A stretch of DNA of 64,000 nucleotides from Snodgrassella alvi (GTDB lineage Bacteria; Pseudomonadota; Gammaproteobacteria; Burkholderiales; Neisseriaceae), in assembly GCF_040741455.2 (NCBI RefSeq), contig NZ_CP160328.2:1987701-2051700 (forward strand), given 5' to 3'. Position 1 is the first letter of the stretch. Each line of letters starts with the position of its first letter. The position numbers and the translations under genes are program-made. The notes under the pieces were generated by a model that saw nothing but the letters and a program-made list of their open reading frames with translations, was not told the DNA's origin and did no database searches. Shown piece by piece: positions 6,074 through 21,933 of this stretch.

Positions 6074-9000
6074 ATGAAAACAAACAACCGACCCCGGAAC
6101 AGCCTGAAGGAATGGCTGTTCCGGGTAATCAGCTACATACTCATGCTGGTAATGGCATTGCCGCAGATGGCGTATGCCCGCATCAGCGGCAATGACGAAA
6201 AATTATCTGGCATCAGTCATGCCAGCGTCAGACTGCCGAATACCGAATATACCGAAAACACCGTAGACATGCGGGTAAAAGTATTAGGTGGAGAAGTCAA
6301 ACTCAACCGCACCTGGGAAAATGGACGTTGGTATCTCAATCCAGCCTGGGCCGAACTACGCTTCGTATTAGATCCGCTCGACAGCAGCGTCAAAACCATC
6401 GATCGTGCCGGTACCCTGTATCAGCGCAGCGGCGAAGCCGACTTATATACCTACAAACAAGTATCCATCAGCAAAACCGAAACCGGCTGGCGCTGGACGG
6501 ATCCAGAGGGTAACTGGATAAACTATGACAGCAAAGGCCGGCCACTGGCCTATGGCAATGCCAACAACGTACAAGTTAGCTTTGAGCTAGATAAAGACGG
6601 GCAGCGCAAAGCCATTAAAGATAACAACGGCGAACTCGTATACAACCTAGACTATGACAATCAGGATCACCTAATCAAAGCCACCGACCGCAGTGGCCGC
6701 AGCGTCAGCTACAACTGGTCCGGAGACCGCCTGACCCAAGTAACCGACGTCATGGGCAACGTCTGGAAATATGGTTACGACAACAACGGCCAGATAAACC
6801 GCCGCACCGATCCCGATGGTGGCGTCACCAAAATTGATTACATCGTGTCCGTACCCTCATCACAGTTTGCCATGGGCAGCGGCCGCAATGGTGGCGTAAT
6901 ATCACAAAGTGCCGTAGTGAGCACCGGCGCAGCCGATCATGAAAACAAACTGGCACGCGTAGGCAAAATCACCAGCAAAACCGGTGCTGTGACTGTTTAT
7001 AACACCGAGTACAACCGCGTCAACAAACAATACACCATCACCGTCAACGATCCGGCCGGACAAAAAACCGTCACCGTATTTGACAGCAATGGACGCGTAC
7101 TGACCGAAAGTATAAACGGCCATCTTACCGCCCGCTATGATCGAGACAGCGCCAACAACATCGTCAAATACACCGACGAACGCGGGCAGATTACCACTAC
7201 CCAGTATAACCAAGCGGACTATCCGGTTAAAGTCACCTATCCGAATGGCGCAGTAGAAGAATATCAATACAATCAGGCCAACAAACCGGTCAAACAAATC
7301 AACGCCAAAGGCGACAGCATCACCTTTGAATACAATGCTGCCAACCAGCCGACCAAAATCACCTATGCTGCCGGCAAACCCGAGCAACGCATCGTCAACT
7401 TCGAGTATGACAACCTAGGTCAGCAAACCAAAGCCACCATAGGCAATAATCAAAAGAGCATCAGCCTGCAGCAAAGCTTTGACCGCTACGGCAACATAGC
7501 CAGCTATACCGATGGCAAAGGGCAACAGTACCAGTACAGCTATAACATACAAGGTCAGCCAACCGAATTACAGAACCCTTTACAGCAGAAATGGCTATTG
7601 GGTTACAACGCTGCCGGTTACACAACACAAGTAACCGACCCACTCAAGCACACCTTTACCATGAAAACCGATGCCCTCGGCCGAATAGTAGAGATGACCG
7701 ATGCGCAAGGCAACAGCACCCATTACAGCTATCAAAATACAGCAACAGGGCGCGAAGTAAAAACCACTGACGCATTGAATCAAGTTACCACCCAGCAGTA
7801 TGACCAGCTCAACCGCCTGATTAAAACCATCACCCCATCCGGACTGGTTAGTGAACAGAGCTACGACAGCAACAGCAGAATCAGCCAGTATAAAGACTAC
7901 AAAGGCAATCAGCTTAGCTACGAATATGGCGCACCCGGCACCAGTCAGGCTGGACTCCTGACCAAAATAAACTACCCGACCTACAGCGAAAGCTACGATT
8001 ATGACAACATGGGTAACACCATCAGCGTCAACCAGCAGCTGGACAGCAATACCCAGATAAGCAGCCACAGCAGCTATGACCAACTAGGCCAACAAATCAG
8101 CCGCACCGATGCTGCCAACCGCACCAGCCAAAGCCAATACAACGCACTGGGACAAATCACAGCCGACATAGATGCACTGTCAGGTAAAACCCAGTACCAG
8201 TATGACCTGTCTGACAACCTCAGCACACTGACTGATGCCAAAGGCAACCAGTACCACTTTGAATATGATCAAAATAACAACCTACTCAAAGAAACCAAAA
8301 CACTGGGCAACAACGTCGAATACAGCTACAACGCTGCCAACCAGCTGACCGAACAGAAGCAGGCCAACGGCAACCGCATACAGTATCAGTATGATGCAGC
8401 GGGAAACCTCAGCCAGCAAAACTACATCGCAGCCGGTGCCGACACCGCCGAACAGACAGTCAACTACCAATATGATGCCAACAACCAACTGACAGACGTA
8501 CAGCAAAGCGGCAGCTCCAACAGCCATTACACCTATCAGCGCGATGCCCTAGGACGAATCGTTGAAGAAAACATCAGCTATGGCCGCATCAGCAAAACCT
8601 TAAAATACAGCTATGATACAGATGGCAACCTAGCCAGCATCACCTATCCCGATAACAGCACAGTAAACTATCGTTATGCCAACGGCCAGTTACAGCAAGC
8701 CATACTGCCAAACGGAGAAGAAATCAACTGGCGTGATTACCAATGGAATCAGCCTAAACGTATCACCTATCCGCAAGCAGAACAAACCAACAGCTATGAT
8801 GCCTTACAGCGACCAACACAAATCAAACTGGTTAGCAAAGGACAAACCTTACTCGAACGCCACTACAGCTACGATAAAGTCAGCAACATCAGCAGTATCC
8901 AGACAGAAAAGGGCAGCAGTAGCTACCAGTATGACCAATTAGACCGCTTAACCCAAGTCAAACCGGAACAGGAAAGCCTAGCGCAACGAGCAGAATCCTA

Positions 9001-10300
9001 CAGCTACGATGCCATCGGCAACCGCACCGGTAGCGCCCAACAACCAGGTGAGTGGCAGTACAACGACCTCAACCAACTCATCAAGTGGGGAGAAGGCAAA
9101 CAACAGACCAGCCTCAGCTACACCATCAACGGGCAGCTAGCGACAGAAGAAAACGCCAATAAAAAACTCAGCTATAGCTACAACGCGGCCGAGAGACTAA
9201 GTAAAGTCAGTAACGACAGCGGAGAAATAGCCAGCTACCAATACGACCCATTTGGCCGGCGCATCAGCAAAACCGTAAATGGCAAAACCACCTACTATAT
9301 CTACAGCAGCGAAGGGCTGATAGCTGAACTGGATCAAACAGGACGGATGCAAGTAGCGTACGGTTGGGCACCAGACAGCGATTGGGGCACCAGCCCACTG
9401 TGGCAGGCGAATCTAAACGAAGGCCAAACCCTAAAAAATGCCAGCTATCACTACCTAATAACAGACCATCTTGGCACCCCACAACTAGCAATAAACAGTA
9501 CAGGAGAACAGAGCTGGAAAATTACCAGTGATGCATTTGGCAACAGCGAACTGGATGCAAATAACCAAATCACCATGAACCTGAGGTTTCCGGGACAGTA
9601 TTACGACGAAGAGACCGGACTGTCGTACAACTACTTCAGGAATTACGACGCGAAGACGGGGAGATATATTCAGAGTGACCCGATAGGGTTAGCAGGAGGA
9701 GTAAACACGTATGGATATGTAGGTGGGAATCCGCTTATATATAGTGACCCGACTGGGGAGATTGCTCCGGTAGTTGGTGCATTAGTTGTTGCTGGAATAA
9801 GGTTAGGCATTATAGGTTTGAGATCAGCATTATCAAGCATTCGGGCAAGAAGATTAGTTTCTGGCATCATGCCTGGAGTAGGTGCAGGCATAAATCAGAA
9901 TATTGATAGAAGATTGAAAGAAGGAAATAATGGGTTACCATATTTAAATTCAAGACATCCAGGGGAAGATCATTTACTTAATGTATGTGAAGGAAAAAAA
10001 GAGTTAGGATATGACCCTTTTGACCCAAACGATCGTTGTCAAAAAATAAGAAATGCAATATATTATTTATCAATGAGAGCAAGAATACGAGCCGGAGACT
10101 TAATAAAATATGGAGGAGGGGACAGTGGACATAATCTAAGGTACAATCGAGTATTAGATGCTTTGAAAAAGCTTGTAAATGAAGCTAAACTTTGGGGTTG
10201 TGAATATGACAAGCAAGCAGATGAAATATTAAAATCATCAAAACGGTCAATAGCAGAAAAAATGAGTGTTTCCAAAGAGGTTGCAAAAAAATTCAATTAG
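6074..10300 (+). CDS. Sec-exported YD-repeat/Rhs polymorphic toxin with unrecognised C-terminal tip
   Basis: 1408 residues. ATG follows AAGGGTC. The N-terminus has basic residues then a hydrophobic run (WLFRVISYILMLVMALPQMAYA), a Sec signal peptide. Dozens of YD repeats follow (forms such as YxYDxxGxLxxxxxxxG), ending in the Rhs-associated core with TGRYIQSDPIGLAGG and YGYVGGNPLIYSDPTGE at about residues 1192-1229. Rhs shells of this type enclose a C-terminal toxin. The variable tip (about 1230-1408) begins with a hydrophobic linker and continues with a polar domain carrying HPGEDHLLNVCEGKKE, KIRNAIYYLSMRARIRAGD and GHNLRYNRVLDALKKL, which I do not recognise. Base composition drops sharply from GC-richer core to AT-rich tip at about 9760. 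No PAAR, VgrG or other type VI gene is present. Confidence 0.88.
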   Translation: MKTNNRPRNSLKEWLFRVISYILMLVMALPQMAYARISGNDEKLSGISHASVRLPNTEYTENTVDMRVKVLGGEVKLNRTWENGRWYLNPAWAELRFVLDPLDSSVKTIDRAGTLYQRSGEADLYTYKQVSISKTETGWRWTDPEGNWINYDSKGRPLAYGNANNVQVSFELDKDGQRKAIKDNNGELVYNLDYDNQDHLIKATDRSGRSVSYNWSGDRLTQVTDVMGNVWKYGYDNNGQINRRTDPDGGVTKIDYIVSVPSSQFAMGSGRNGGVISQSAVVSTGAADHENKLARVGKITSKTGAVTVYNTEYNRVNKQYTITVNDPAGQKTVTVFDSNGRVLTESINGHLTARYDRDSANNIVKYTDERGQITTTQYNQADYPVKVTYPNGAVEEYQYNQANKPVKQINAKGDSITFEYNAANQPTKITYAAGKPEQRIVNFEYDNLGQQTKATIGNNQKSISLQQSFDRYGNIASYTDGKGQQYQYSYNIQGQPTELQNPLQQKWLLGYNAAGYTTQVTDPLKHTFTMKTDALGRIVEMTDAQGNSTHYSYQNTATGREVKTTDALNQVTTQQYDQLNRLIKTITPSGLVSEQSYDSNSRISQYKDYKGNQLSYEYGAPGTSQAGLLTKINYPTYSESYDYDNMGNTISVNQQLDSNTQISSHSSYDQLGQQISRTDAANRTSQSQYNALGQITADIDALSGKTQYQYDLSDNLSTLTDAKGNQYHFEYDQNNNLLKETKTLGNNVEYSYNAANQLTEQKQANGNRIQYQYDAAGNLSQQNYIAAGADTAEQTVNYQYDANNQLTDVQQSGSSNSHYTYQRDALGRIVEENISYGRISKTLKYSYDTDGNLASITYPDNSTVNYRYANGQLQQAILPNGEEINWRDYQWNQPKRITYPQAEQTNSYDALQRPTQIKLVSKGQTLLERHYSYDKVSNISSIQTEKGSSSYQYDQLDRLTQVKPEQESLAQRAESYSYDAIGNRTGSAQQPGEWQYNDLNQLIKWGEGKQQTSLSYTINGQLATEENANKKLSYSYNAAERLSKVSNDSGEIASYQYDPFGRRISKTVNGKTTYYIYSSEGLIAELDQTGRMQVAYGWAPDSDWGTSPLWQANLNEGQTLKNASYHYLITDHLGTPQLAINSTGEQSWKITSDAFGNSELDANNQITMNLRFPGQYYDEETGLSYNYFRNYDAKTGRYIQSDPIGLAGGVNTYGYVGGNPLIYSDPTGEIAPVVGALVVAGIRLGIIGLRSALSSIRARRLVSGIMPGVGAGINQNIDRRLKEGNNGLPYLNSRHPGEDHLLNVCEGKKELGYDPFDPNDRCQKIRNAIYYLSMRARIRAGDLIKYGGGDSGHNLRYNRVLDALKKLVNEAKLWGCEYDKQADEILKSSKRSIAEKMSVSKEVAKKFN

Positions 10301-11226: not shown

Positions 11227-11948
11227 AGCCCACTGTGGTAAGCTAACCTAAGTGAAGGCCAAACCTTGAAAAACGCCAGTTATTACTACCTAATAACAGA
11301 CCATCTGGGCACCATGCAACAAGCAATAAACAGTGCAGGAGAACAGAGCTGGAAGATTACCAGTGATGCATTTGGCAACAGCGAACTGGATGTAAATAAC
11401 CAAATCACAATGAACCTGAGGTTTCTGGGACAGTATTACTACGAAGAGACTGGACTATCGTATAACTACTTCAGGGATTATGACGCGAAGACGGGAAGGT
11501 ATATTCAGAATGACCCAATAGGGTTAGCAGGAGGAGTAAACACGTATGGATATGTAGGTGGAAATCCGCTTTTATACAGTGACCCGACTGGGGAGATTGC
11601 TCCTATAGCTGTTCCATTAATTGTTGCTGTAATAAGGGTAGCAATAAATGGGATACGATTTTGTGCGTTAAATTTTACTTGAAACAGACTGGCAAGCGAA
11701 GCGTTGAAATGGGGGATGGTAGGAGAGCAAGCAGCTACTGATAAACATAGGCAAGTGGGTGATAGGAATAGAGTTATAAGAGAATGTAAAAAATATAAAG
11801 ATAGTGAGGTAGGTTATACTGTACATGTTTAGGGGATAGAGTTGTGATTACAAAATCAAATGGAGAAATACATACTAGTTTCAAAAATTTCAGAGCTAAT
11901 ACCAATATGAGAGTAAAGAAGGGAAAATGGGTTCGACAATGGGACTAA
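11227..11948 (+). pseudogene. Displaced Rhs tip 1: core fragment, linker and broken toxin tail
   Basis: Homology to the main Rhs gene starts at 11227 (about main position 9390) and runs through LRFLGQYYYEETGLSYNYF, TGRYIQNDPIGLAGG and the PTGE junction. The hydrophobic linker (IAPIAVPLIVAVIRVAINGIR) is shared with tip 4. A TGA at 11680-11682 replaces the TGC (Cys) seen in tip 4. A TAG at 11830 and a frame change near 11828 interrupt the frame again. Beyond it, in a new frame, a tail reads GDRVVITKSNGEIHTSFKNF and KKGKWVRQWD and stops at 11946-11948. That tail resembles compact RNase-type toxin tips, without firm family assignment. Two lesions and no start mean this copy is not expressed as it stands. 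Confidence 0.8.
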
Positions 11949-12220
11949 ATTTATATAAAGAAAGCAGTATATTAATAAATCAATGTAATAATGATTGTAA
12001 TAATATATGTAAAGCTAACTTGTTAGAAAGATTGAAAGATAATAAGTTTGCTGTAATATCAATAGATTATTTATACGATGATGCTGATTTCGAGAAGGAT
12101 TGTGTAAGCCAAAAAAAAAATTATTACGAATTAGTTAGAGAAGAATTTAGCTTTTCATATTTAAAATGGTTTAATACTGAACAAGAAGCATTAGACAATT
12201 TTTTTTATGATATGGTTTAA
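11939..12220 (+). CDS. Candidate immunity protein for displaced tip 1
   Basis: 93 residues from the ATG at 11939, which overlaps the last codons and stop of the broken toxin tail; an in-frame ATG at 11927 is an alternative. GGGAAAATGGG upstream could serve for ribosome binding. The product is small, acidic and Cys-containing (INQCNNDCNNICKANLLERL), with no signal peptide. Family not recognised. The overlap suggests translational coupling in the intact ancestor. The gene is open although its toxin is broken. Confidence 0.55.
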   Translation: MGLNLYKESSILINQCNNDCNNICKANLLERLKDNKFAVISIDYLYDDADFEKDCVSQKKNYYELVREEFSFSYLKWFNTEQEALDNFFYDMV

Positions 12221-12392: not shown

Positions 12393-13505
12393 GGAGAAAT
12401 AGCCAGCTACCAGTACGACCCATTTGGCCGGCGCATCAGCAAAACCGTAAATGGCAAAACTACCTACTATATCTACAGCAGCGAAGGGCTAATAGCTGAA
12501 CTGAATCAGACAGGACGGATGCAAGTAGCGTACGGTTGGGCACCAGATAGCGACTGGGGCACCAGCCCACTGTGGCAGGCGAATCTAAACGAAGGCCAAA
12601 CCCTAAAAAATGCCAGCTATCACTACCTGATAACAGACCATCTGGGCACCCCACAACTAGCAATAAACAGTACAGGAGAACAGAGCTGGAAGATTACCAG
12701 TGATGCATTTGGCAACAGCGAACTGGATGCAAATAACCAAATCACCATGAACCTGAGGTTTCCGGGACAGTATTACGATGAAGAGACTGGACTATCGTAT
12801 AACTATTTCAGGGATTACGACGCGAAGACGGGGAGATATATTCAGAATGACCCGATAGGGTTAGCTGGGGGAATAAACACGTATGGGTATGTAGGTGGAA
12901 ATCCGCTGGTATATAGTGACCCAACTGGGGAGTTGGCTCAAGTAATAGTGCCAGTATTAATAGGAGCCACTATTATAAGTGCATGTGTAGTGTCACCAGC
13001 ATGTAAAAAATTTGTGACTGATTCTTGGTCTGGTTTATATCAAAATATACGTGAAAGAATTAAAGGCACAGATGTTTTGCCTACATTATCGGAGCACAAA
13101 GAAGATGATAAAAATAATACAAAATCATGCGATAGTAATACAGTTAATATAAACGACCTTAATAATATAAGTACTAATGGAGCAGCTCCTCCTCCTGATC
13201 CAGATAATGAGAATGAACAAGATAAAGTTCTAAAGGATATTATTAATGATTCTACTCCTGGGCCAAAAACAAAAGGACACAGTACACAATATATACGTAA
13301 TAAATCTGGATGGGAGCAAACGCAAAAGGATTTTAATAATTTAAATCCAAGTAATGTTAAAAATGTAGGTAGAGAAAATGTTGTTTTACATGGTCAGCTT
13401 AAGGATGGCAGAATAGTAGTAATACGTCCTAATAGCTCTAGTGGCAGACCCACAATGGAAATAAGACCTATTAAAGGTAAACGAGTAACAAAAATTAGAT
13501 ATTAA
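12393..13505 (+). CDS. Displaced Rhs tip 2: intact core end, linker and KIRY-type toxin tip
   Basis: Rhs core homology starts at 12393 (GEIASYQYDPFGRR), directly after an in-frame TAA at 12390-12392, and stays open for 371 codons; the first ATG is at 12519. The core end is intact, including TGRYIQNDPIGLAGG and the PTGE junction. The linker (QVIVPVLIGATIISACVVSP) is shared with tip 3. A polar low-complexity segment (GAAPPPDPDNENEQDK) follows. The tip is small and basic: HSTQYIRNKSGWEQ, NVVLHGQLKDGRIVVIRP, SSGRPTMEIRP and a final VTKIRY. The pattern RPxSSxGRPTxEI...KIRY is common at the ends of Rhs and CDI toxins. An RNase-like fold is my inference. Without the shell it is probably a silent cassette that could recombine into the main gene. 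Confidence 0.7.
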   Translation, partial: GEIASYQYDPFGRRISKTVNGKTTYYIYSSEGLIAELNQTGRMQVAYGWAPDSDWGTSPLWQANLNEGQTLKNASYHYLITDHLGTPQLAINSTGEQSWKITSDAFGNSELDANNQITMNLRFPGQYYDEETGLSYNYFRDYDAKTGRYIQNDPIGLAGGINTYGYVGGNPLVYSDPTGELAQVIVPVLIGATIISACVVSPACKKFVTDSWSGLYQNIRERIKGTDVLPTLSEHKEDDKNNTKSCDSNTVNINDLNNISTNGAAPPPDPDNENEQDKVLKDIINDSTPGPKTKGHSTQYIRNKSGWEQTQKDFNNLNPSNVKNVGRENVVLHGQLKDGRIVVIRPNSSSGRPTMEIRPIKGKRVTKIRY

Positions 13506-13517
13506 CAAGGATATGTG

Positions 13518-14033
13518 ATGAACATTTGTGATCAAAATACATCTTTGTATAGAGATAAAATTGAATTTATACAAAGTATTTTAAATACTCACTGCGTGAT
13601 TTCAAAAGATTTTATTTATAAAAATAATTGGGTAGCAATGATTATTCCTGAAAATCTTGAAATTATTGAGTCTGAATGGTTGTCTGATGCCATTCATAGA
13701 TTTGGATTTACTACATATGAACAATATATTATCGAAAATAATGATAAAATAGAATATTTAGAAATTATTAATAATCAAGAAAATATTTATGATAGCGAAT
13801 ACGGTTTTTTGGATAAACGAGTTATTCTAACTAATAAAAATATTGATTTTATGTATTATAAAAATTTAGATAATTTATATCATATATTTGCTGGAACTTA
13901 TGATTTTGTTTATAGCTGCATTCAATGTAGTGAGCAAAATTGTAAAGAAATTTATAACGAGTACTATCATCAATTTATGAAAGATTCCAAAGAATTTCGA
14001 GAATGCAAATATATATGGGATTTATATCAATAA
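13518..14033 (+). CDS. Candidate immunity protein 2a, paralogue of the next gene
   Basis: 171 residues from the ATG at 13518, with AAGGA six bases upstream; GTG at 13515 is an alternative start. Key segments are NWVAMIIPENLEIIESEWLS, DAIHRFG, NIDFMYYK and LYHIFAGTYDFVYSCIQCS. The next gene shares the same landmarks, so the two are paralogues. The family was not recognised. Its place directly after the intact tip 2 makes it the likely cognate inhibitor of that toxin. Confidence 0.6.
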   Translation: MNICDQNTSLYRDKIEFIQSILNTHCVISKDFIYKNNWVAMIIPENLEIIESEWLSDAIHRFGFTTYEQYIIENNDKIEYLEIINNQENIYDSEYGFLDKRVILTNKNIDFMYYKNLDNLYHIFAGTYDFVYSCIQCSEQNCKEIYNEYYHQFMKDSKEFRECKYIWDLYQ

Positions 14034-14058
14034 ATTAATTTAGCTTTATTTAGTATTT

Positions 14059-14083
14059 AATCCTTGCCTTTTGGCAAGGATTT
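14059..14083 (+). terminator. Hairpin terminator after immunity 2a
   Basis: AATCCTTGCC / GGCAAGGATT with a four-base loop, then a short T/A-rich tail. It separates the two paralogous immunity genes, so the second needs its own promoter or read-through. Confidence 0.65.
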
Positions 14084-14133
14084 ATATATATAATTTTTAA
14101 TTAAGCGTAAGTAAATAAATAATGGGGCTAATA

Positions 14134-14667
14134 ATGAGTAATTTAATTTCAAGAAAAGCATTATTTGAGAATAAAGCTAATTTTTCTGAATACTTACTAA
14201 ATTCAGATAAAGGAATTTCTAAGCAATTTATAAATGATAAAGGATGGGTAGCTATGCCTTGTGCAGGCTATCTATATTCAATAGAGGCTGAGTGGCTTTC
14301 TGATGCAATTCATAGGTTAGGGTCTAATAGTTATTATCAATACTTATTCTATGACGATGGATTGGAAGAAATATTACAATTTAATAATAATAGTAGTAAT
14401 ATTAATTCTAGTGATTTAAATTATTCATATTGTCATACAATTATAACTAATGAAAATGTTGATTTTGTATATTACAGGCATGAATGGGGTTTATATCATA
14501 TGTTTGCTGGTACACCTGATTTTGTTTATAGTTGTATTCGTTGTAGTAGAAGAATTAGTAAAAAAATGTTTTTAGAATATTGTTTTAATGATGCGGAAAG
14601 TCCAGCTGATTATGAAAAATGTAAACGAGCTTGGTTTTTATATCAAGGTGATGATTTGGAAAATTAA
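14134..14667 (+). CDS. Candidate immunity protein 2b, duplicated paralogue without its own toxin
   Basis: 177 residues from the ATG at 14134, with GGGG nine bases upstream; an upstream in-frame ATG lies at 14122. Shared with 13518-14033 are GWVAMP, EAEWLSDAIHRLG, TNENVDFVYYR, LYHMFAGTPDFVYSCIRCS and a final Trp-x-LYQ. The sequences are clearly homologous but diverged, so this is an older duplication or an import. No toxin fragment lies between the two genes. An orphan immunity gene could protect against a related toxin variant. Confidence 0.6.
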   Translation: MSNLISRKALFENKANFSEYLLNSDKGISKQFINDKGWVAMPCAGYLYSIEAEWLSDAIHRLGSNSYYQYLFYDDGLEEILQFNNNSSNINSSDLNYSYCHTIITNENVDFVYYRHEWGLYHMFAGTPDFVYSCIRCSRRISKKMFLEYCFNDAESPADYEKCKRAWFLYQGDDLEN

Positions 14668-14753
14668 TTTATATTGATCTGATATAATTAATTTATTTTA
14701 AATGTTTAATCCAATTATTAATTCTCAATCTTAAATAATTAATAATTGATTTG

Positions 14754-15878
14754 TTAATCCAAGTCAAACCGAAACAAGAAAGCCAAGCGCAACGAGCAGA
14801 ATCGTACAGCTACGATGCCATAGACAACCGCACCGGTAGCGCCCAACAACCAGGTGAGTGGCAGTACAACGACCTCAACCAACTCATCAAATGGGGAGAA
14901 GGCAAACAACAAACCAGCCTCAGCTACACCATCAACGGGCAGCTAGCGACAGAAGAAAACGCCAATAAAAAACTCAGCTATAGCTATAACGCTGCAGATA
15001 GACTAAGTAAAGTCAGCAACGACAACGGAGAAATAGCCAGCTACCAATACGACCCATTTGGCCGGCGCATCAGCAAAACCGTAAATGGCAAAACTACCTA
15101 CTACATCTACAGCAGCGAAGGACTAATAGCCAAACTGGATCAAACAGGACGGATGCAAGTAGCGTACGGTTGGGCACCAGACAGCGATTGGGGCATCAGG
15201 CCCTTATGGCAGGCCAATCTAAATGAAGGCCAAACCCTAAAAAATGCCAGCTATCACTACCTAATAACAGACCATCTTGGCACCCCACAACTAGCAATAA
15301 ACAGTGCAGGAGAACAGAGCTGGAAGATTACCAGTGATGCGTTTGGCAACAGCGAACTGGATGCAAATAACCAAATCACCATGAACCTGAGGTTTCCGGG
15401 ACAGTATTACGACGAAGAGACCGGACTATCGTATAACTACTTCAGGGATTATGACGCGAAGACGGGGAGATATATCCAGAGTGACCCGATAGGGTTAGCA
15501 GGAGGAGTAAACACGTATGGGTATGTAGGTGGAAATCCGCTGGTATACAGTGATCCGACTGGGGAGTTTGCTCAAGTAATAGTTCCAGTATTAATAGGAG
15601 CCACTATTTTAAGTGCATGTGTAGTGTCACCAGTATGTAAAAAAAATGTCACTGATTCTTGGTCTGGTTTATATCAAAATATACGTGAAAGAATTAAAGG
15701 CACAGATGTTTTGCCTACATTAACGGGAAACAGAGAAGATAATAAAAATAATACAAAATCATGCGATAGTAATACAGTTAGTATAAATGATCCCAATAAT
15801 GTTACTATATTATGGGAGCAGTACCTCCACCTGAAGATCCTGATGATGAAAAAACTCAGATTCTTTTATTGGTATTAG
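14754..15878 (+). pseudogene. Displaced Rhs tip 3: longest core fragment, frame lost before the toxin
   Basis: Homology to the main Rhs begins at 14754 (QVKPKQESQAQRAESYSYDA) and covers about 800 bases of the core, including TGRYIQSDPIGLAGG. The linker (QVIVPVLIGATILSACVVSP) is nearly the same as in tip 2. After SINDPNNV the frame runs into a nonsense tail and stops at 15876-15878. Comparison with tip 2 shows the expected GAVPPPEDPDDE in the +2 frame and the toxin in yet another frame, so two indels separate core and toxin. One indel lies at a run of six A at about 15849-15854. Confidence 0.75.
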
Positions 15879-16197
15879 TGCTGATGAAATAAAATTGATA
15901 AATAAAATTCATGGTGGTTCAAATACGGTTACAGGAGAAGTTGATACGGTTTTAGCAAATATGTCGTATAGAACAGGATTTTATGATAAGAGTGCCGTGG
16001 TTATTAGAGATATTGCTGGTAGACATTTATTTAATAATGCAAATAAAAGAACGGCTCAAACTGTTGTAGAGCAACTTGCAAAAAGAAATAATATTAATAT
16101 TAGTAAATCTCAAATTAGAAATGTAATTAATAATTCTGCTACTGGAAGGTTGAGAAGTATTGAAGAAATATCTGGAGCTTTAAAAAATGGTATATAG
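15850..16197 (+). CDS. Fic/Doc-like toxin tip of displaced cassette 3
   Basis: An open frame of about 115 codons with no good start, TTG at 15895 being the only candidate. It contains INKIHGGSNTVTGEVD, VVIRDIAG and then HLFNNANKRTAQTVVEQL. The last segment fits the Fic/Doc active-site loop HxFx(N/D)xNKR, with Asn-Ala as in Doc. Fic domains transfer AMP or similar groups and Doc phosphorylates EF-Tu; which reaction applies here cannot be told. The domain is short, and the final part (NNSATGRLRSIEEISGALKNGI) is unrecognised. It is separated from its Rhs linker by two frameshifts, so it is silent unless repaired by recombination. The stop overlaps the start of the next gene. Confidence 0.7.
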   Translation, partial: KNSDSFIGISADEIKLINKIHGGSNTVTGEVDTVLANMSYRTGFYDKSAVVIRDIAGRHLFNNANKRTAQTVVEQLAKRNNINISKSQIRNVINNSATGRLRSIEEISGALKNGI

Positions 16198-16408
16198 AGT
16201 TAATATGATCACTTATTTAGATCAAGTTGAATCAATTGCACAAGAAGGTTGCACAATAGTAATCAAATTTGATGGTGAGAGGGATAAGAAAAATTTTTAT
16301 ACTGTGGTTTTATCGGGAGGCCAATTAAAAGATGATTATTTTAGAAAGGATGGTGCCGATTTACCTTTATTACTTCGTGAAATGATAAATTTTTATAAAA
16401 ATTATTAA
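16187..16408 (+). CDS. Candidate immunity protein for the Fic/Doc-like tip
   Basis: 73 residues. The ATG at 16187 overlaps the last 11 bases of the toxin frame, implying coupled translation; a second ATG lies at 16205. The product is small and mixed charge (IVIKFDGERDKKNFYTVVLS), with no signal peptide. It shows no resemblance to Phd, nor to the antitoxin helix SxxxE(G/N) that inhibits many Fic proteins, so the inhibitory mode would be different. Assignment is by position. Confidence 0.55.
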   Translation: MVYRVNMITYLDQVESIAQEGCTIVIKFDGERDKKNFYTVVLSGGQLKDDYFRKDGADLPLLLREMINFYKNY

Positions 16409-16430
16409 TTTAAAATAATTATGTTAAAAA

Positions 16431-16459
16431 AATCCTAGATTATAGACTAGGATTTTTTT
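16431..16459 (+). terminator. Rho-independent terminator after Fic-cassette immunity gene
   Basis: AATCCTAG / CTAGGATT stem with an eight-base loop, followed by a T-run. Confidence 0.8.
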
Positions 16460-16494
16460 AAAATTTATCTATAATAAATTTTTTAATATTTTTT

Positions 16495-17390: not shown

Positions 17391-18468
17391 AGCTACAACG
17401 CGGCCGAGAGACTAAGTAAAGTCAGCAACGACAGCAGAAAAATAGCTAGTTACCATACGACCTGTTTGGCCGGCGCATCAGCAAAACCGTAAATGGCAAA
17501 ACCACCTACTACATCTACAGCAGCGCAGGGCTGATAGCCGACCTGGATCAAACAGGACGGATGCAAGTAGCGTATAGCTGGATACCGGACAGCGATTGGG
17601 GCACCAGCCAATTGTGACAGGCCAATCTAAATGAAGGCCAAACCCTAAAAAATGCCAGCTATCACTACCTAATAACAGACCATCTGGGCACTCCACAACT
17701 AGCAATAAACAGTGCAGGAGAACAGAGCAGGAAGATTACCAGTGATGCATTTGGCAACAGCGAACTGGATGCAAATAACCAAATCACCATGAACCTGAGG
17801 TTTCCGGGACAGTATTACGACGAAGAGACTGGACTATCGTATAACTACTTCAGGGATTATGACGCGAAGACGGGGAGATATATTCAGAATGACCCGATAG
17901 GGTTGGCTGGAGGGATAAACACGTATGGATATGTAGGTGGAAATCCGCTGGTATACAGTGATCCGACTGAGGAGATTGCTCCTGTAGCTGTTCCATTAAT
18001 TGTTGCTGGAATAAGGGTTGCAATAAATGGGATACGATTTTGTGTGTTGAATCCTACTTGCAACAGACTGGCAAGCGAAGCGTTGAAATGGGGGATGGTA
18101 GGTTGGCTTACAGGATTACCCACAATACCAATGCTTAATGATAATAAAAGTCAGGATAAAAGGACTGTGAAACTAAAGATATTGAAATAAGTGATGCAAA
18201 TAGTAAGAATACGGTAGGAGGTTCACCTGATCCTGATGATCAAGATAATAATTATAAAAAGAAATTAAAAAAAGGAGATCAAGTTGACTCAAGCCGATTT
18301 AATAAAAGACTTAAGGGTGGAGATTATCAAGATCCTAAAACTGGCTGGAAAATTTCTAAAGACAGAGCAGGAGTAAGAGGACATGGAGGTAGTTACTGGA
18401 AGTTATTTAACAAAAAAGGTGATAGAATAGGTACATTAAGTAAAGAAGGAAAATATATAAGAGAATGA
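17391..18468 (+). pseudogene. Displaced Rhs tip 4: damaged core, linker and HGGS/WKLF toxin tip
   Basis: Core homology begins at 17391 (SYNAAERLSKVSNDS). A one-base loss at about 17453 and a TGA at 17610 break it. The frame reopens at 17789 (LRFPGQYYDEETGLSYNYF) and runs to 18190 through the linker (VAVPLIVAGIRVAINGIRF, then CNRLASEALKWGMVG) shared with tip 1. A further frameshift near 18168 separates it from the toxin, which reads in another frame: DSSRFNKRLKGGDYQDPKTG, WKISKDRAGVRGHGGSYWKL, FNKKGDRIGTL and a stop at 18466-18468. The GGxYxDPxTGWxIxKDxAG...HGGSxWKL pattern is widespread in toxin tips; I recall it as a nuclease-type tip but cannot name the family with certainty. Confidence 0.75.
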
Positions 18469-18947
18469 GAAATTTAATATACAAATTGATTAAATTAGAT
18501 TTAAGTAATTTAAATTTATTAGAAAAAAAATATTATATTTTTTGTATTTCTATTTTTGATCATTTTTTAACAGAAAATGAATACATTAATGCTGATCTAG
18601 TTTCTTATAATGATGCAAAAAAAAGTGTAAGAAAAAAAATGTTATTTAATAAAATTGAAAATAAATTTATATTTATATATACATATTTGTTTAAAATTTC
18701 AAAAGCAAATGTTATTGCTATAATTGATAATAAACCAATAAGAATTAAATCGTTTAATAATTATATGTATTTATTGGATAATGTTCTTAAAGAAAAAAGA
18801 TTGTATATATTTATTTATCCATTATTAGGTTGTTTTACAATCACTGGATATGATTTAACACATCAATTTTTTGTTAAAAAAAACAAATTTATTCTTAAAA
18901 AACAAATTGAAATTTTAGCAAATAAAACTAAATTAAACATAATATAA
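18465..18947 (+). CDS. Candidate immunity protein for tip 4
   Basis: 160 residues. The ATG overlaps the toxin stop as ATGA, the usual sign of translational coupling. The product is extremely rich in Lys, Ile, Asn and Phe, is probably soluble despite hydrophobic stretches, and has no clear signal peptide. Family not recognised. The open frame contrasts with at least three lesions in its toxin partner. Confidence 0.55.
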   Translation: MRNLIYKLIKLDLSNLNLLEKKYYIFCISIFDHFLTENEYINADLVSYNDAKKSVRKKMLFNKIENKFIFIYTYLFKISKANVIAIIDNKPIRIKSFNNYMYLLDNVLKEKRLYIFIYPLLGCFTITGYDLTHQFFVKKNKFILKKQIEILANKTKLNII

Positions 18948-20419: not shown

Positions 20420-20848
20420 ATGAAAACAGAATTCAAATTTAATGGAACTCTTTTTGGTAATGTAAGTTGTAGTGGTAATCCAACATTAGAAGATATAAAT
20501 AATGCTCTAGATTTATTTGCTTCAAGCGAAGGCGTACTTTATTTGATACAGGATTATGTGAAAGGTACAACGCCTTACGAATTGACGCTTTACGCAGATA
20601 AAGGAAAATATCTAGTCATGTTTTCAAAAAGGCTTCCATTAGCTGGAAATGAAGATGATGAAGATAATGAAGATGATGAAGATGATGAAGTAAGAACTTT
20701 TTGGGACAGTAATCGAACTCGGGGTTTGGTAAGTGTATACGGTGATTTATGGGATAATCGAACCATAACCGAAGATTTTACGAAAGTCAGAAAAGCATTT
20801 AATGAATTTTATTTAACAGGAGATATTGATAGAAATCTTGTTGAATAG
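20420..20848 (+). CDS. Immunity protein with acidic repeat, copy A
   Basis: 142 residues, ATG with AAGAAGATTTC upstream. Key segments are NPTLEDINNALDLFASSEGV, GTTPYELTLYADKGKYLVMF, an acidic run GNEDDEDNEDDEDDEVRTFW and VRKAFNEFYLTGDIDRNL. It is about 80 percent identical to the second copy at 21370. Just upstream, GTAAAATGAATAGAAAGAAG matches the last codons of the deaminase-like tip that precedes copy B, so the toxin end was duplicated with the gene. Likely function: cytoplasmic inhibitor of a deaminase-like toxin (inferred from copy B). Confidence 0.65.
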   Translation: MKTEFKFNGTLFGNVSCSGNPTLEDINNALDLFASSEGVLYLIQDYVKGTTPYELTLYADKGKYLVMFSKRLPLAGNEDDEDNEDDEDDEVRTFWDSNRTRGLVSVYGDLWDNRTITEDFTKVRKAFNEFYLTGDIDRNLVE

Positions 20849-20884
20849 AAAAAAAGCCCCGAAATTTTATTCGGGGTTTTTTTA
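20849..20884 (+). terminator. Rho-independent terminator after immunity copy A
   Basis: AAAGCCCCGAA / TTCGGGGTTT with a six-base loop and a seven-T tail. In copy B (about 21799-21834) the right arm is changed to TTCTGGTTA, so that hairpin is broken. Confidence 0.85.
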
Positions 20885-21060
20885 TTCTTCAATTCAATTC
20901 TAAAGCCGTAATTAAGATTCTGGATTGATTTAAAAATTGTTAAACCAATTCCTATCAAGGCTGTTGACTAATTTGTCAAAATTACTATTAATTTAATACA
21001 AGAGATTATTTGATTTTAGTAAAAAGGTAAATTAAAAAAAACGAGTTTATTTAATAAAAT

Positions 21061-21373
21061 GTTGATACACAAGAAATAGCTAAGAAAGTAGCAAAATCCA
21101 AAAATCCAAAATCAAATGGTGATATGAAGAATACACATGCAGAAATAGGAGCACTACAGCAGGCTGCTGATAAGGTTGTAACCGAAGGAGCTAATGCATA
21201 TATGGGAGTTAAGGGGAGGAGGTGTGTACTATTGCAGACATGATATTGTTTCAATGGCTAAAGCATCAAAATTGAATTCATTAAATATCAAAGCTGAGAC
21301 TACAGAAGCAGATATATTTTATAAATGGAAACCTGGTATGAGTAAAATGGAAAGAACGGAGACTCCAAAATGA
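21061..21373 (+). pseudogene. Broken cytidine-deaminase-like toxin tip
   Basis: Frame 1 reads DTQEIAKKVAKSKNPKSNGD, then NTHAEIGALQQAADKVV and runs to about 21225. After a one-base shift, the next frame reads VYYCRHDIVSMAKASKLNSL, NIKAETTEADIFYKWKPGMS and ends at TGA 21371-21373. His-Ala-Glu followed by a Cys-x-x-Cys region (the first Cys falls at the shift, TGTGTACTATTGC) is the zinc and catalytic signature of the deaminase superfamily. The HAEIGALQQA and CRxDI elements most recall XOO_2897-type toxin deaminases (from memory). The core Rhs fragment is missing here. Toxins of this group deaminate bases in nucleic acid. Confidence 0.7.
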
Positions 21374-21933
21374 AAACAGAATTTAAATTTAATGGAAGAA
21401 TAGTTGGTGATCTATATAAAAATAATGATGGAATTGTAAATCGTAACCCAACACTAGAAGATATAAATAATGCTCTGGATTTATTTGCCTCAAGTGAGGG
21501 CGTACTTTATCTGATACAAAATGATGTGAAAGGTACGACTCCTTACGAATTGAAGCTTTACGCAGATAATGGAAAATATCTAGTCTTGTTTTCGAAAAGG
21601 GCTCCATTAGCTGGAAATGAAGATGATGAAGATGATGAAGTAAGAACTTTTTGGGACAATAATCGAACTCGGGGTTTGGTAAGTTTATACGGTGATTTGT
21701 GGGATAATCGAACCATAACCGAAGATTTTACGAAAGTCAGAAAAGCATTTAATGAATTTTATTTAACAGGAGATATTGATAGAAATCTTGTTGAATAGAA
21801 AAAAAGCCCCGAAATTTTATTCTGGTTATTTTTATTCTTCAATTCTAAAGTCGTAGTTAAGATTCTGGATTGATTTAAAAATTATTAAACCAATTCCTAT
21901 CAAGGCTGTTGGCTAATTTGTCAAAATTACTAT
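21338..21933 (+). repeat. Direct repeat copy B
   Basis: Second copy of the unit at 20388-20988. Its end at about 21933 coincides with the boundary to non-Rhs DNA (alcohol dehydrogenase pseudogene). Confidence 0.8.
21370..21798 (+). CDS. Immunity protein with acidic repeat, copy B
   Basis: 142 residues. The ATG overlaps the stop of the deaminase-like tip as ATGA. Apart from a divergent N-terminal loop (GDLYKNNDGIVNRNPTLEDI) and a shorter acidic run (GNEDDEDDEVRTFW) it matches copy A. The position makes it the cognate inhibitor of the deaminase-like toxin. Both copies are open while the toxin is frameshifted. Family name not recognised with confidence. Confidence 0.7.
   Translation: MKTEFKFNGRIVGDLYKNNDGIVNRNPTLEDINNALDLFASSEGVLYLIQNDVKGTTPYELKLYADNGKYLVLFSKRAPLAGNEDDEDDEVRTFWDNNRTRGLVSLYGDLWDNRTITEDFTKVRKAFNEFYLTGDIDRNLVE

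What the first reader, a model, noticed from the sequence alone, without database searches (positions are those of the whole stretch)
15850..16197. Fic/Doc-like toxin tip stored behind two frameshifts
HLFNNANKRTA fits the Fic/Doc catalytic loop, with Doc-like Asn-Ala-Asn-Lys-Arg. It sits behind an Rhs core and linker but in a different frame, with one lesion in an A6 run. The adjacent 73-residue partner does not look like Phd or a known Fic inhibitor.
Basis: partly seen in the sequence, partly recalled or inferred. Interest (0 to 1): 0.6.

Follow-up and report, generated by a model that had tools for sequence, protein, structure and literature searches.

The report
Broken Doc toxin tip, intact immunity
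A bacterium, probably a bee-gut symbiont, keeps the broken remains of an injected antibacterial toxin related to phage P1 Doc next to an intact small gene of an unnamed family that accompanies the same toxin tip in unrelated bacteria and is probably its antidote.

Summary
Bases 15850-16194 (+) encode a 115-residue Doc domain. It matches the Doc family model (E=2.7e-9, just under cut-off), carries the Doc loop HLFNNANKR, and its AlphaFold2 model (pLDDT 90.9) finds P1 Doc as the top five PDB hits, far ahead of any AMPylating Fic. It lies out of frame behind a displaced Rhs core and linker. The first frame change is confirmed by the paralogous linker; the second falls in a short interval containing the A6 run.

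The main addition is the neighbour. Relatives of this tip (43-54% identical) occur on CdiA-type and Rhs/HINT chassis in Formivibrio, Streptomyces and viral-collection contigs. In all seven loci that keep the tip's 3' end, the next gene encodes a homologue of the 73-residue protein. A profile built without the window finds it at E=5e-18, best of 613 ORFs. The family has no Pfam, NCBIfam or confident structural match, is not Phd, and lacks a conserved Fic-inhibitory helix. It is most likely the dedicated immunity protein of a delivered, Doc-type kinase toxin.

Here the toxin is a decayed or dormant orphan from C-terminal displacement with its immunity gene kept. Polymorphic Doc toxins were already known; the pairing with this immunity family appears new.

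The parts
14751..15878 (+). Displaced Rhs core fragment plus start of the linker (375-codon ORF); it ends out of frame before the tip
   Evidence: TIGR03696 Rhs_assc_core E=1.8e-23; frames
15571..15805 (+). Linker, same type as that of the orphan at 12519-13505; GC 0.33 against 0.48 in the core
   Evidence: DNA alignment with the paralogue; GC; 93% identical linkers in own genome and same-species genome G072
15795..15815 (+). First frame change (net -1, modulo 3) inside the linker
   Evidence: Frame change; insertion/deletion difference from the paralogous linker
15847..15864 (+). Second frame change (net -1, modulo 3), interval containing the A6 run 15849-15854
   Evidence: Stops and homology in the frames and tip alignment
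15850..16197 (+). Doc-type toxin tip, 115 residues plus stop
   Evidence: TIGR01550 E=2.7e-9; AlphaFold2 pLDDT 90.9, pTM 0.86; Foldseek top five = P1 Doc
16024..16050 (+). Doc catalytic loop HLFNNANKR, fits HxFx(D/N)(A/G)NKR
   Evidence: consensus from PMC4177925; same motif in five relatives
16174..16177 (+). GGAG, a possible ribosome-binding site 9 nt before the ATG of the immunity gene, inside the toxin 3' end
   Evidence: Read from the sequence; inference
16187..16408 (+). Putative immunity gene, 73 residues, overlaps the toxin stop; predicted alpha-beta-beta-beta-alpha
   Evidence: Profile of six relatives without the window: 59.9 bits, E=5.1e-18, best of 613 ORFs; AlphaFold2 pLDDT 88.8
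16424..16461 (+). Terminator-like inverted repeat (15 pairs) closing the toxin-immunity unit
   Evidence: 2 found, 0.2 expected; the same palindrome on both strands
6074..10300 (+). Full-length Rhs at the head of the array (1408 aa); in G072 the corresponding gene carries the tip that is an orphan here at 12519-13505

Best explanation
The stretch is the remnant of a polymorphic-toxin cassette: Rhs core, linker, Doc-type kinase tip and its own immunity gene. It was pushed downstream of the full-length rhs gene by C-terminal displacement. When intact and delivered, the tip would enter a neighbouring bacterium and, by analogy with P1 Doc, phosphorylate EF-Tu and stop translation. Delivery was probably by the T6SS in this genome, and by CdiA or Rhs/HINT carriers in the relatives. 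The 73-residue protein, of a family seen next to this tip across carriers and phyla, would bind the toxin domain and block it without using a Phd-type segment. In this genome two frame changes keep the tip from being made as part of an Rhs protein, while the immunity gene is intact and may still protect against siblings that carry the toxin. Shown here: domain identity, fold prediction, frames, conserved pairing, tip exchange at this locus. Inferred: kinase activity, EF-Tu target, T6SS delivery, inhibition by binding.
For: Doc model E=2.7e-9, and all five tips scanned match it. Foldseek P1 Doc TM 0.72, prob 1.00, E=2.7e-4, next Fic E=0.33. Loop fits the Doc kinase consensus of PMC4177925. Tips with 43-54% identity on CdiA-type (L001: VENN-like pre-toxin), Rhs (L008) and HINT/Rhs (L006, L007) carriers. 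Same small protein immediately downstream in window, L001, L006, L007, L008, L014, L015. Profile test E=5e-18. In L015 the toxin is likewise frame-shifted in its loop while the immunity ORF is open. In the same-species genome G072 the head rhs gene carries the tip that is an orphan here, the slot matching the Doc orphan holds another tip, and homology ends at 15569, the core/tip border. A TssC homologue is intact in the genome. PMC5727410 describes such arrays, and immunity genes kept beside pseudogenized toxins, in Snodgrassella.
Against: No activity or binding was measured. The window tip scores just under the Doc model's cut-off. The identity of the target is by analogy with one studied Doc. 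Homologues of the small protein also stand alone on Streptomyces plasmids without a Doc nearby, so the family may do more than neutralize this tip. Family counts are small (seven pairs).
Confidence: 0.8

Rival explanations
1. The frame changes are assembly errors and the genome encodes an intact orphan Doc-Rhs protein.
For: Part of one interval is a homopolymer (A6), and only one assembly carries the locus.
Against: One contig, 100% complete. Neighbouring conserved genes from 23 to 42 kb, such as those starting MTDYSKTVNLLDTPF (926 aa) and MSDKKILLANPRGFC (313 aa), are open at full length. Two separate changes would be needed. Other displaced tips in the same array are broken too: a stop at 11680-11682, and a frame change before 18190.
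Confidence: 0.12
2. The tip is expressed by programmed frameshifting at the A6 run.
For: AAAAAAC is a slippery heptamer in other systems (general knowledge), and the shift needed is -1.
Against: Read from the frames, the heptamer is not in phase with the incoming frame, and the first frame change has no slippery sequence. Intact relatives L001, L006, L008 and L014 need no shift.
Confidence: 0.03
3. The tip and small protein are a stand-alone toxin-antitoxin pair that merely landed behind an Rhs fragment.
For: The domain belongs with Doc, and Phd-Doc are small overlapping gene pairs.
Against: In four control Doc loci the antitoxin is Phd/YefM or prevent-host-death family and lies upstream. Here the partner is downstream and unrelated, and the relatives are fused in frame to Rhs, HINT or CdiA carriers.
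Confidence: 0.05
4. The small protein is not an immunity protein but an accessory factor, such as a chaperone for export or folding.
For: No binding data, and relatives occur alone on Streptomyces plasmids.
Against: It is the gene immediately 3' of the tip across unrelated carriers, and stays open beside two broken toxins (window, L015), as expected of immunity genes (PMC5727410).
Confidence: 0.1

Closest known systems
Phd-Doc toxin-antitoxin system of phage P1
   Same: Six-helix Doc fold, HxFx(D/N)(A/G)NKR loop, small partner gene
   Different: Toxin is the tip of a delivered protein; partner lies downstream, has another predicted fold and no Phd similarity
Tox-Doc polymorphic toxins (Zhang et al. 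2012, PMC3482391)
   Same: Doc/Fic tip on a modular carrier, adjacent immunity gene
   Different: Listed there with motif HxFx[DE]GNxR, T5SS/T7SS carriers and Imm13, Imm23 or SUKH immunity; here NKR loop with D or N, also Rhs carriers, and an immunity family that no Pfam or NCBIfam model matches
Orphan Rhs tip arrays of Snodgrassella (Steele et al. 2017, PMC5727410)
   Same: Full-length rhs, then displaced core-tip-immunity cassettes, some with broken toxins and kept immunity
   Different: No Fic or Doc tip is mentioned in the main text of that paper or of the 2021 follow-up PMC8125069
FicTA / VbhA-type Fic antitoxins
   Same: Small partner of a Fic-fold toxin
   Different: Their (S/T)xxxE(G/N) helix is not conserved; the SIAQEG of the window protein is not kept at that position in relatives

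Membership tests
Doc (death-on-curing) toxin domain | Loop HxFx(D/N)(A/G)NKR | tested here: met
   HLFNNANKR; all six in-frame tips fit; consensus from PMC4177925
Doc (death-on-curing) toxin domain | Six-helix Doc fold | tested here: met
   Six helices, pLDDT 90.9; top five PDB matches are P1 Doc
Doc (death-on-curing) toxin domain | Score above the curated cut-off of TIGR01550 | tested here: inconclusive
   37.2 bits against 38.65, E=2.7e-9; 1.5 bits short
Doc (death-on-curing) toxin domain | Phosphorylates EF-Tu | not testable with these tools
   Inference from P1 Doc
Phd-Doc toxin-antitoxin system | Phd/YefM antitoxin encoded next to the toxin, upstream | tested here: not met
   No Pfam or NCBIfam match for the partner; partner downstream; controls have Phd upstream
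Polymorphic toxin of Tox-Doc type | Doc tip C-terminal to a modular carrier with immunity gene directly downstream | tested here: met
   Intact in L001, L006, L008, L014; broken in the window
Polymorphic toxin of Tox-Doc type | Immunity of Imm13, Imm23 or SUKH type | tested here: not met
   No Pfam model matches the six members at E<=1 except one weak chance hit; relies on those Imm families being in Pfam
Rhs orphan (displaced) tip cassette | Truncated core with different tip downstream of a full-length rhs | tested here: met
   Array in the window and tip exchange against G072
Fic with class I antitoxin (VbhA type) | Inhibitory motif (S/T)xxxE(G/N) conserved in the partner | tested here: not met
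   Regex present in the window protein but not at the aligned position in relatives

The most novel reading that the evidence does not exclude
A widespread but rare class of contact-delivered EF-Tu kinases, moved between Rhs, HINT and CdiA carriers in Pseudomonadota and Actinomycetota, is held in check by a previously unnamed alpha-beta3-alpha immunity family that inhibits Doc by a route different from Phd.
Probability: 0.45. Interest if true: 0.62.

Novelty: new variant of a known kind. Interest (0 to 1): 0.48.

Why it matters
Doc toxins are described as parts of Phd-Doc modules (PMC4177925). A Doc that travels on delivery carriers with an unrelated protector would show that this kinase was recruited as a weapon and would give a second, independent solution to blocking it. 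The pair is small, intact in several environmental bacteria and directly testable in a laboratory strain. The locus also shows tip exchange between two strains of one species.

Tried and rejected
Weak hits in two relatives of the same genus (L004, L005; E about 1e-3): L004 was read and is a TonB-dependent receptor by its sequence, and L005 has the same ORF size; rejected. L016 is another Fic protein without the pair. L002 is a truncated tip cut off by other DNA. SIAQEG in the small protein matches the Fic inhibitory motif but is not conserved, rejected. hmmsearch hits of the immunity profile to PPR and designed TIM-barrel repeats, and of the tip profile to the repeats of a TAL effector, are sums of tiny repeat matches, rejected. 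Foldseek of the immunity model gives nothing at E<=0.001 in PDB or BFVD; best are HPF/dsRBD-like shapes and T7 Gp1.2 at TM about 0.5, not used. Searches of 83 family, 399 order, 369 class and 398 phylum genomes found no other in-frame copy. A search of Streptomyces genomes could not be centred.

Full report
What is there. The window lies in a 2.29 Mb single-contig genome. An array of Rhs genes starts with a full-length copy (6074-10300) and continues with displaced core fragments, each with its own tip and small downstream genes. The finding concerns the fragment at 14751-15878 and the open frame behind it.

Frames. Translating 15600-16420 in three frames shows core and linker in one frame up to about 15805, the linker end GAVPPPEDPDDEK in a second frame, and 15850-16194 in a third. 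The paralogous linker of the orphan at 12519-13505 reads NISTNGAAPPPDPDNENEQ in one frame, so the first change is real relative to its paralogue. The second change falls between about 15847 and 15864, because the tip's homology to relatives (F-x-x-G-[IVL]-[ST]-x-[DE]) already runs in the third frame from 15865. The A6 run is the only homopolymer of four or more wholly in that interval. Programmed frameshifting is unlikely: the AAAAAAC heptamer is out of phase with the incoming frame and the other change has no slippery site. An assembly error is not excluded, but conserved genes at 23-42 kb are open at full length, and two other displaced tips of the array are also broken.

Identity of the tip. 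NCBIfam DOC_P1 matches at E=2.7e-9, 1.5 bits under its cut-off; Pfam Fic is weak. Single-sequence and profile searches of the PDB find P1 Doc. The model built from five rows has six helices, pLDDT 90.9 and pTM 0.86. Foldseek lists P1 Doc five times first (TM 0.72, prob 1.00), then AMPylating Fic proteins at E of 0.3 and worse. The loop HLFNNANKR fits the Doc consensus HxFx(D/N)(A/G)NKR. The lysine in that motif is the change reported to turn ATP round and make Doc a kinase (PMC4177925). The Asn at the acidic position is within that consensus and recurs in L006, L008 and L014.

Relatives and the neighbour. Scans of genome, plasmid and viral collections gave tips 43-54% identical to the window's: L001 Formivibrio behind a VENN-like pre-toxin region, L006 Streptomyces plasmid in a polymorphic toxin-type HINT protein, L007 and L008 in Rhs-type genes of viral-collection contigs, L014 another, and L015 with a frame change in the loop. 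In L001, L006, L007, L008, L014, L015 and the window the next gene encodes a small protein with invariant E, G, K-x-D-x-x-R, T and R positions. In L001 it is fused behind a cREC_REC domain. A profile from the six others scores the window's 73-residue ORF at 59.9 bits, E=5.1e-18, first of 613 ORFs; the best of 5000 shuffles reaches 7.9 bits. No Pfam or NCBIfam family covers these proteins, and PHROGs gives only chance-level single hits. The predicted fold is alpha-beta-beta-beta-alpha, pLDDT 88.8, without a confident structural match.

Comparison with stand-alone Doc. Four Doc loci fetched as controls carry Phd/YefM or prevent-host-death antitoxins upstream. A tree keeps the tips together on one side of a branch with modest support (67/82), with one long-branch Doc (L028) unsure. 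So the tips look like one lineage of Doc recruited to delivery carriers, but this is not firmly shown.

How the locus arose. In G072, a second genome of the same species, the head rhs gene carries the tip that is an orphan at 12519-13505 here. The slot matching the Doc orphan has another tip, and DNA homology stops at 15569, the core/tip border. That is the pattern expected of C-terminal displacement as described for these bacteria (PMC5727410; PMC8125069). The Doc tip and partner are absent from the other 82 genomes of the family searched. The tip is AT-rich (GC 0.29 against 0.48 in the core). The unit ends in a terminator-like palindrome.

Mechanism. Most likely: delivery by the T6SS (TssC present), a Doc-type kinase acting on EF-Tu in a competitor, and neutralization by the small protein in kin. 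In this strain the toxin cannot be made as an Rhs fusion, and the kept immunity gene may still protect. Kinase activity, target, delivery and binding are inferred.

Known or new. Polymorphic Tox-Doc toxins were tabulated in 2012 with Imm13, Imm23 and SUKH partners and the motif HxFx[DE]GNxR (PMC3482391). The tip is therefore a new member of a known kind. The recurring pairing with an unnamed immunity family, and the Rhs carrier, make it a new variant. Literature searches for a delivered Doc with such a partner found nothing in the held library, which lacks most subscription journals.

Noticed in passing
window 11242-11829: Another displaced Rhs core whose tip is cut by an in-frame stop at 11680-11682, with an open 97-106 residue gene (11900-12220) downstream that has homologues behind Rhs tips in G072.
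   Followed up: partly
window 17618-18947: Displaced Rhs core whose tip (about 18160-18465) lies in another frame than the core, followed by an open 160-residue gene; again a broken toxin with an open neighbour.
   Followed up: partly
window 13515-14667: Two similar-looking genes (172 and 181 residues) in tandem behind one tip, also in G072; no database family; looks like a duplicated immunity gene.
   Followed up: no
L001 981-1508: The relative of the small protein in Formivibrio is fused to an N-terminal cREC_REC (cyclic-phosphate processing receiver) domain, perhaps a double immunity protein.
   Followed up: no
L009-L012: Homologues of the Streptomyces immunity protein, 44-79% identical, stand alone on many Streptomyces plasmids without a Doc tip nearby; orphan immunity genes or another role.
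   Followed up: partly
L002 and L014: Both loci have a primase-like gene (toprim/CHC2-type by eye) shortly behind the Doc tip region, suggesting that a similar mobile element sits at the tip end.
   Followed up: no
window 20420-21798: Two very similar 142-residue ORFs (20420-20848 and 21370-21798) in tandem at the end of the Rhs array.
   Followed up: no
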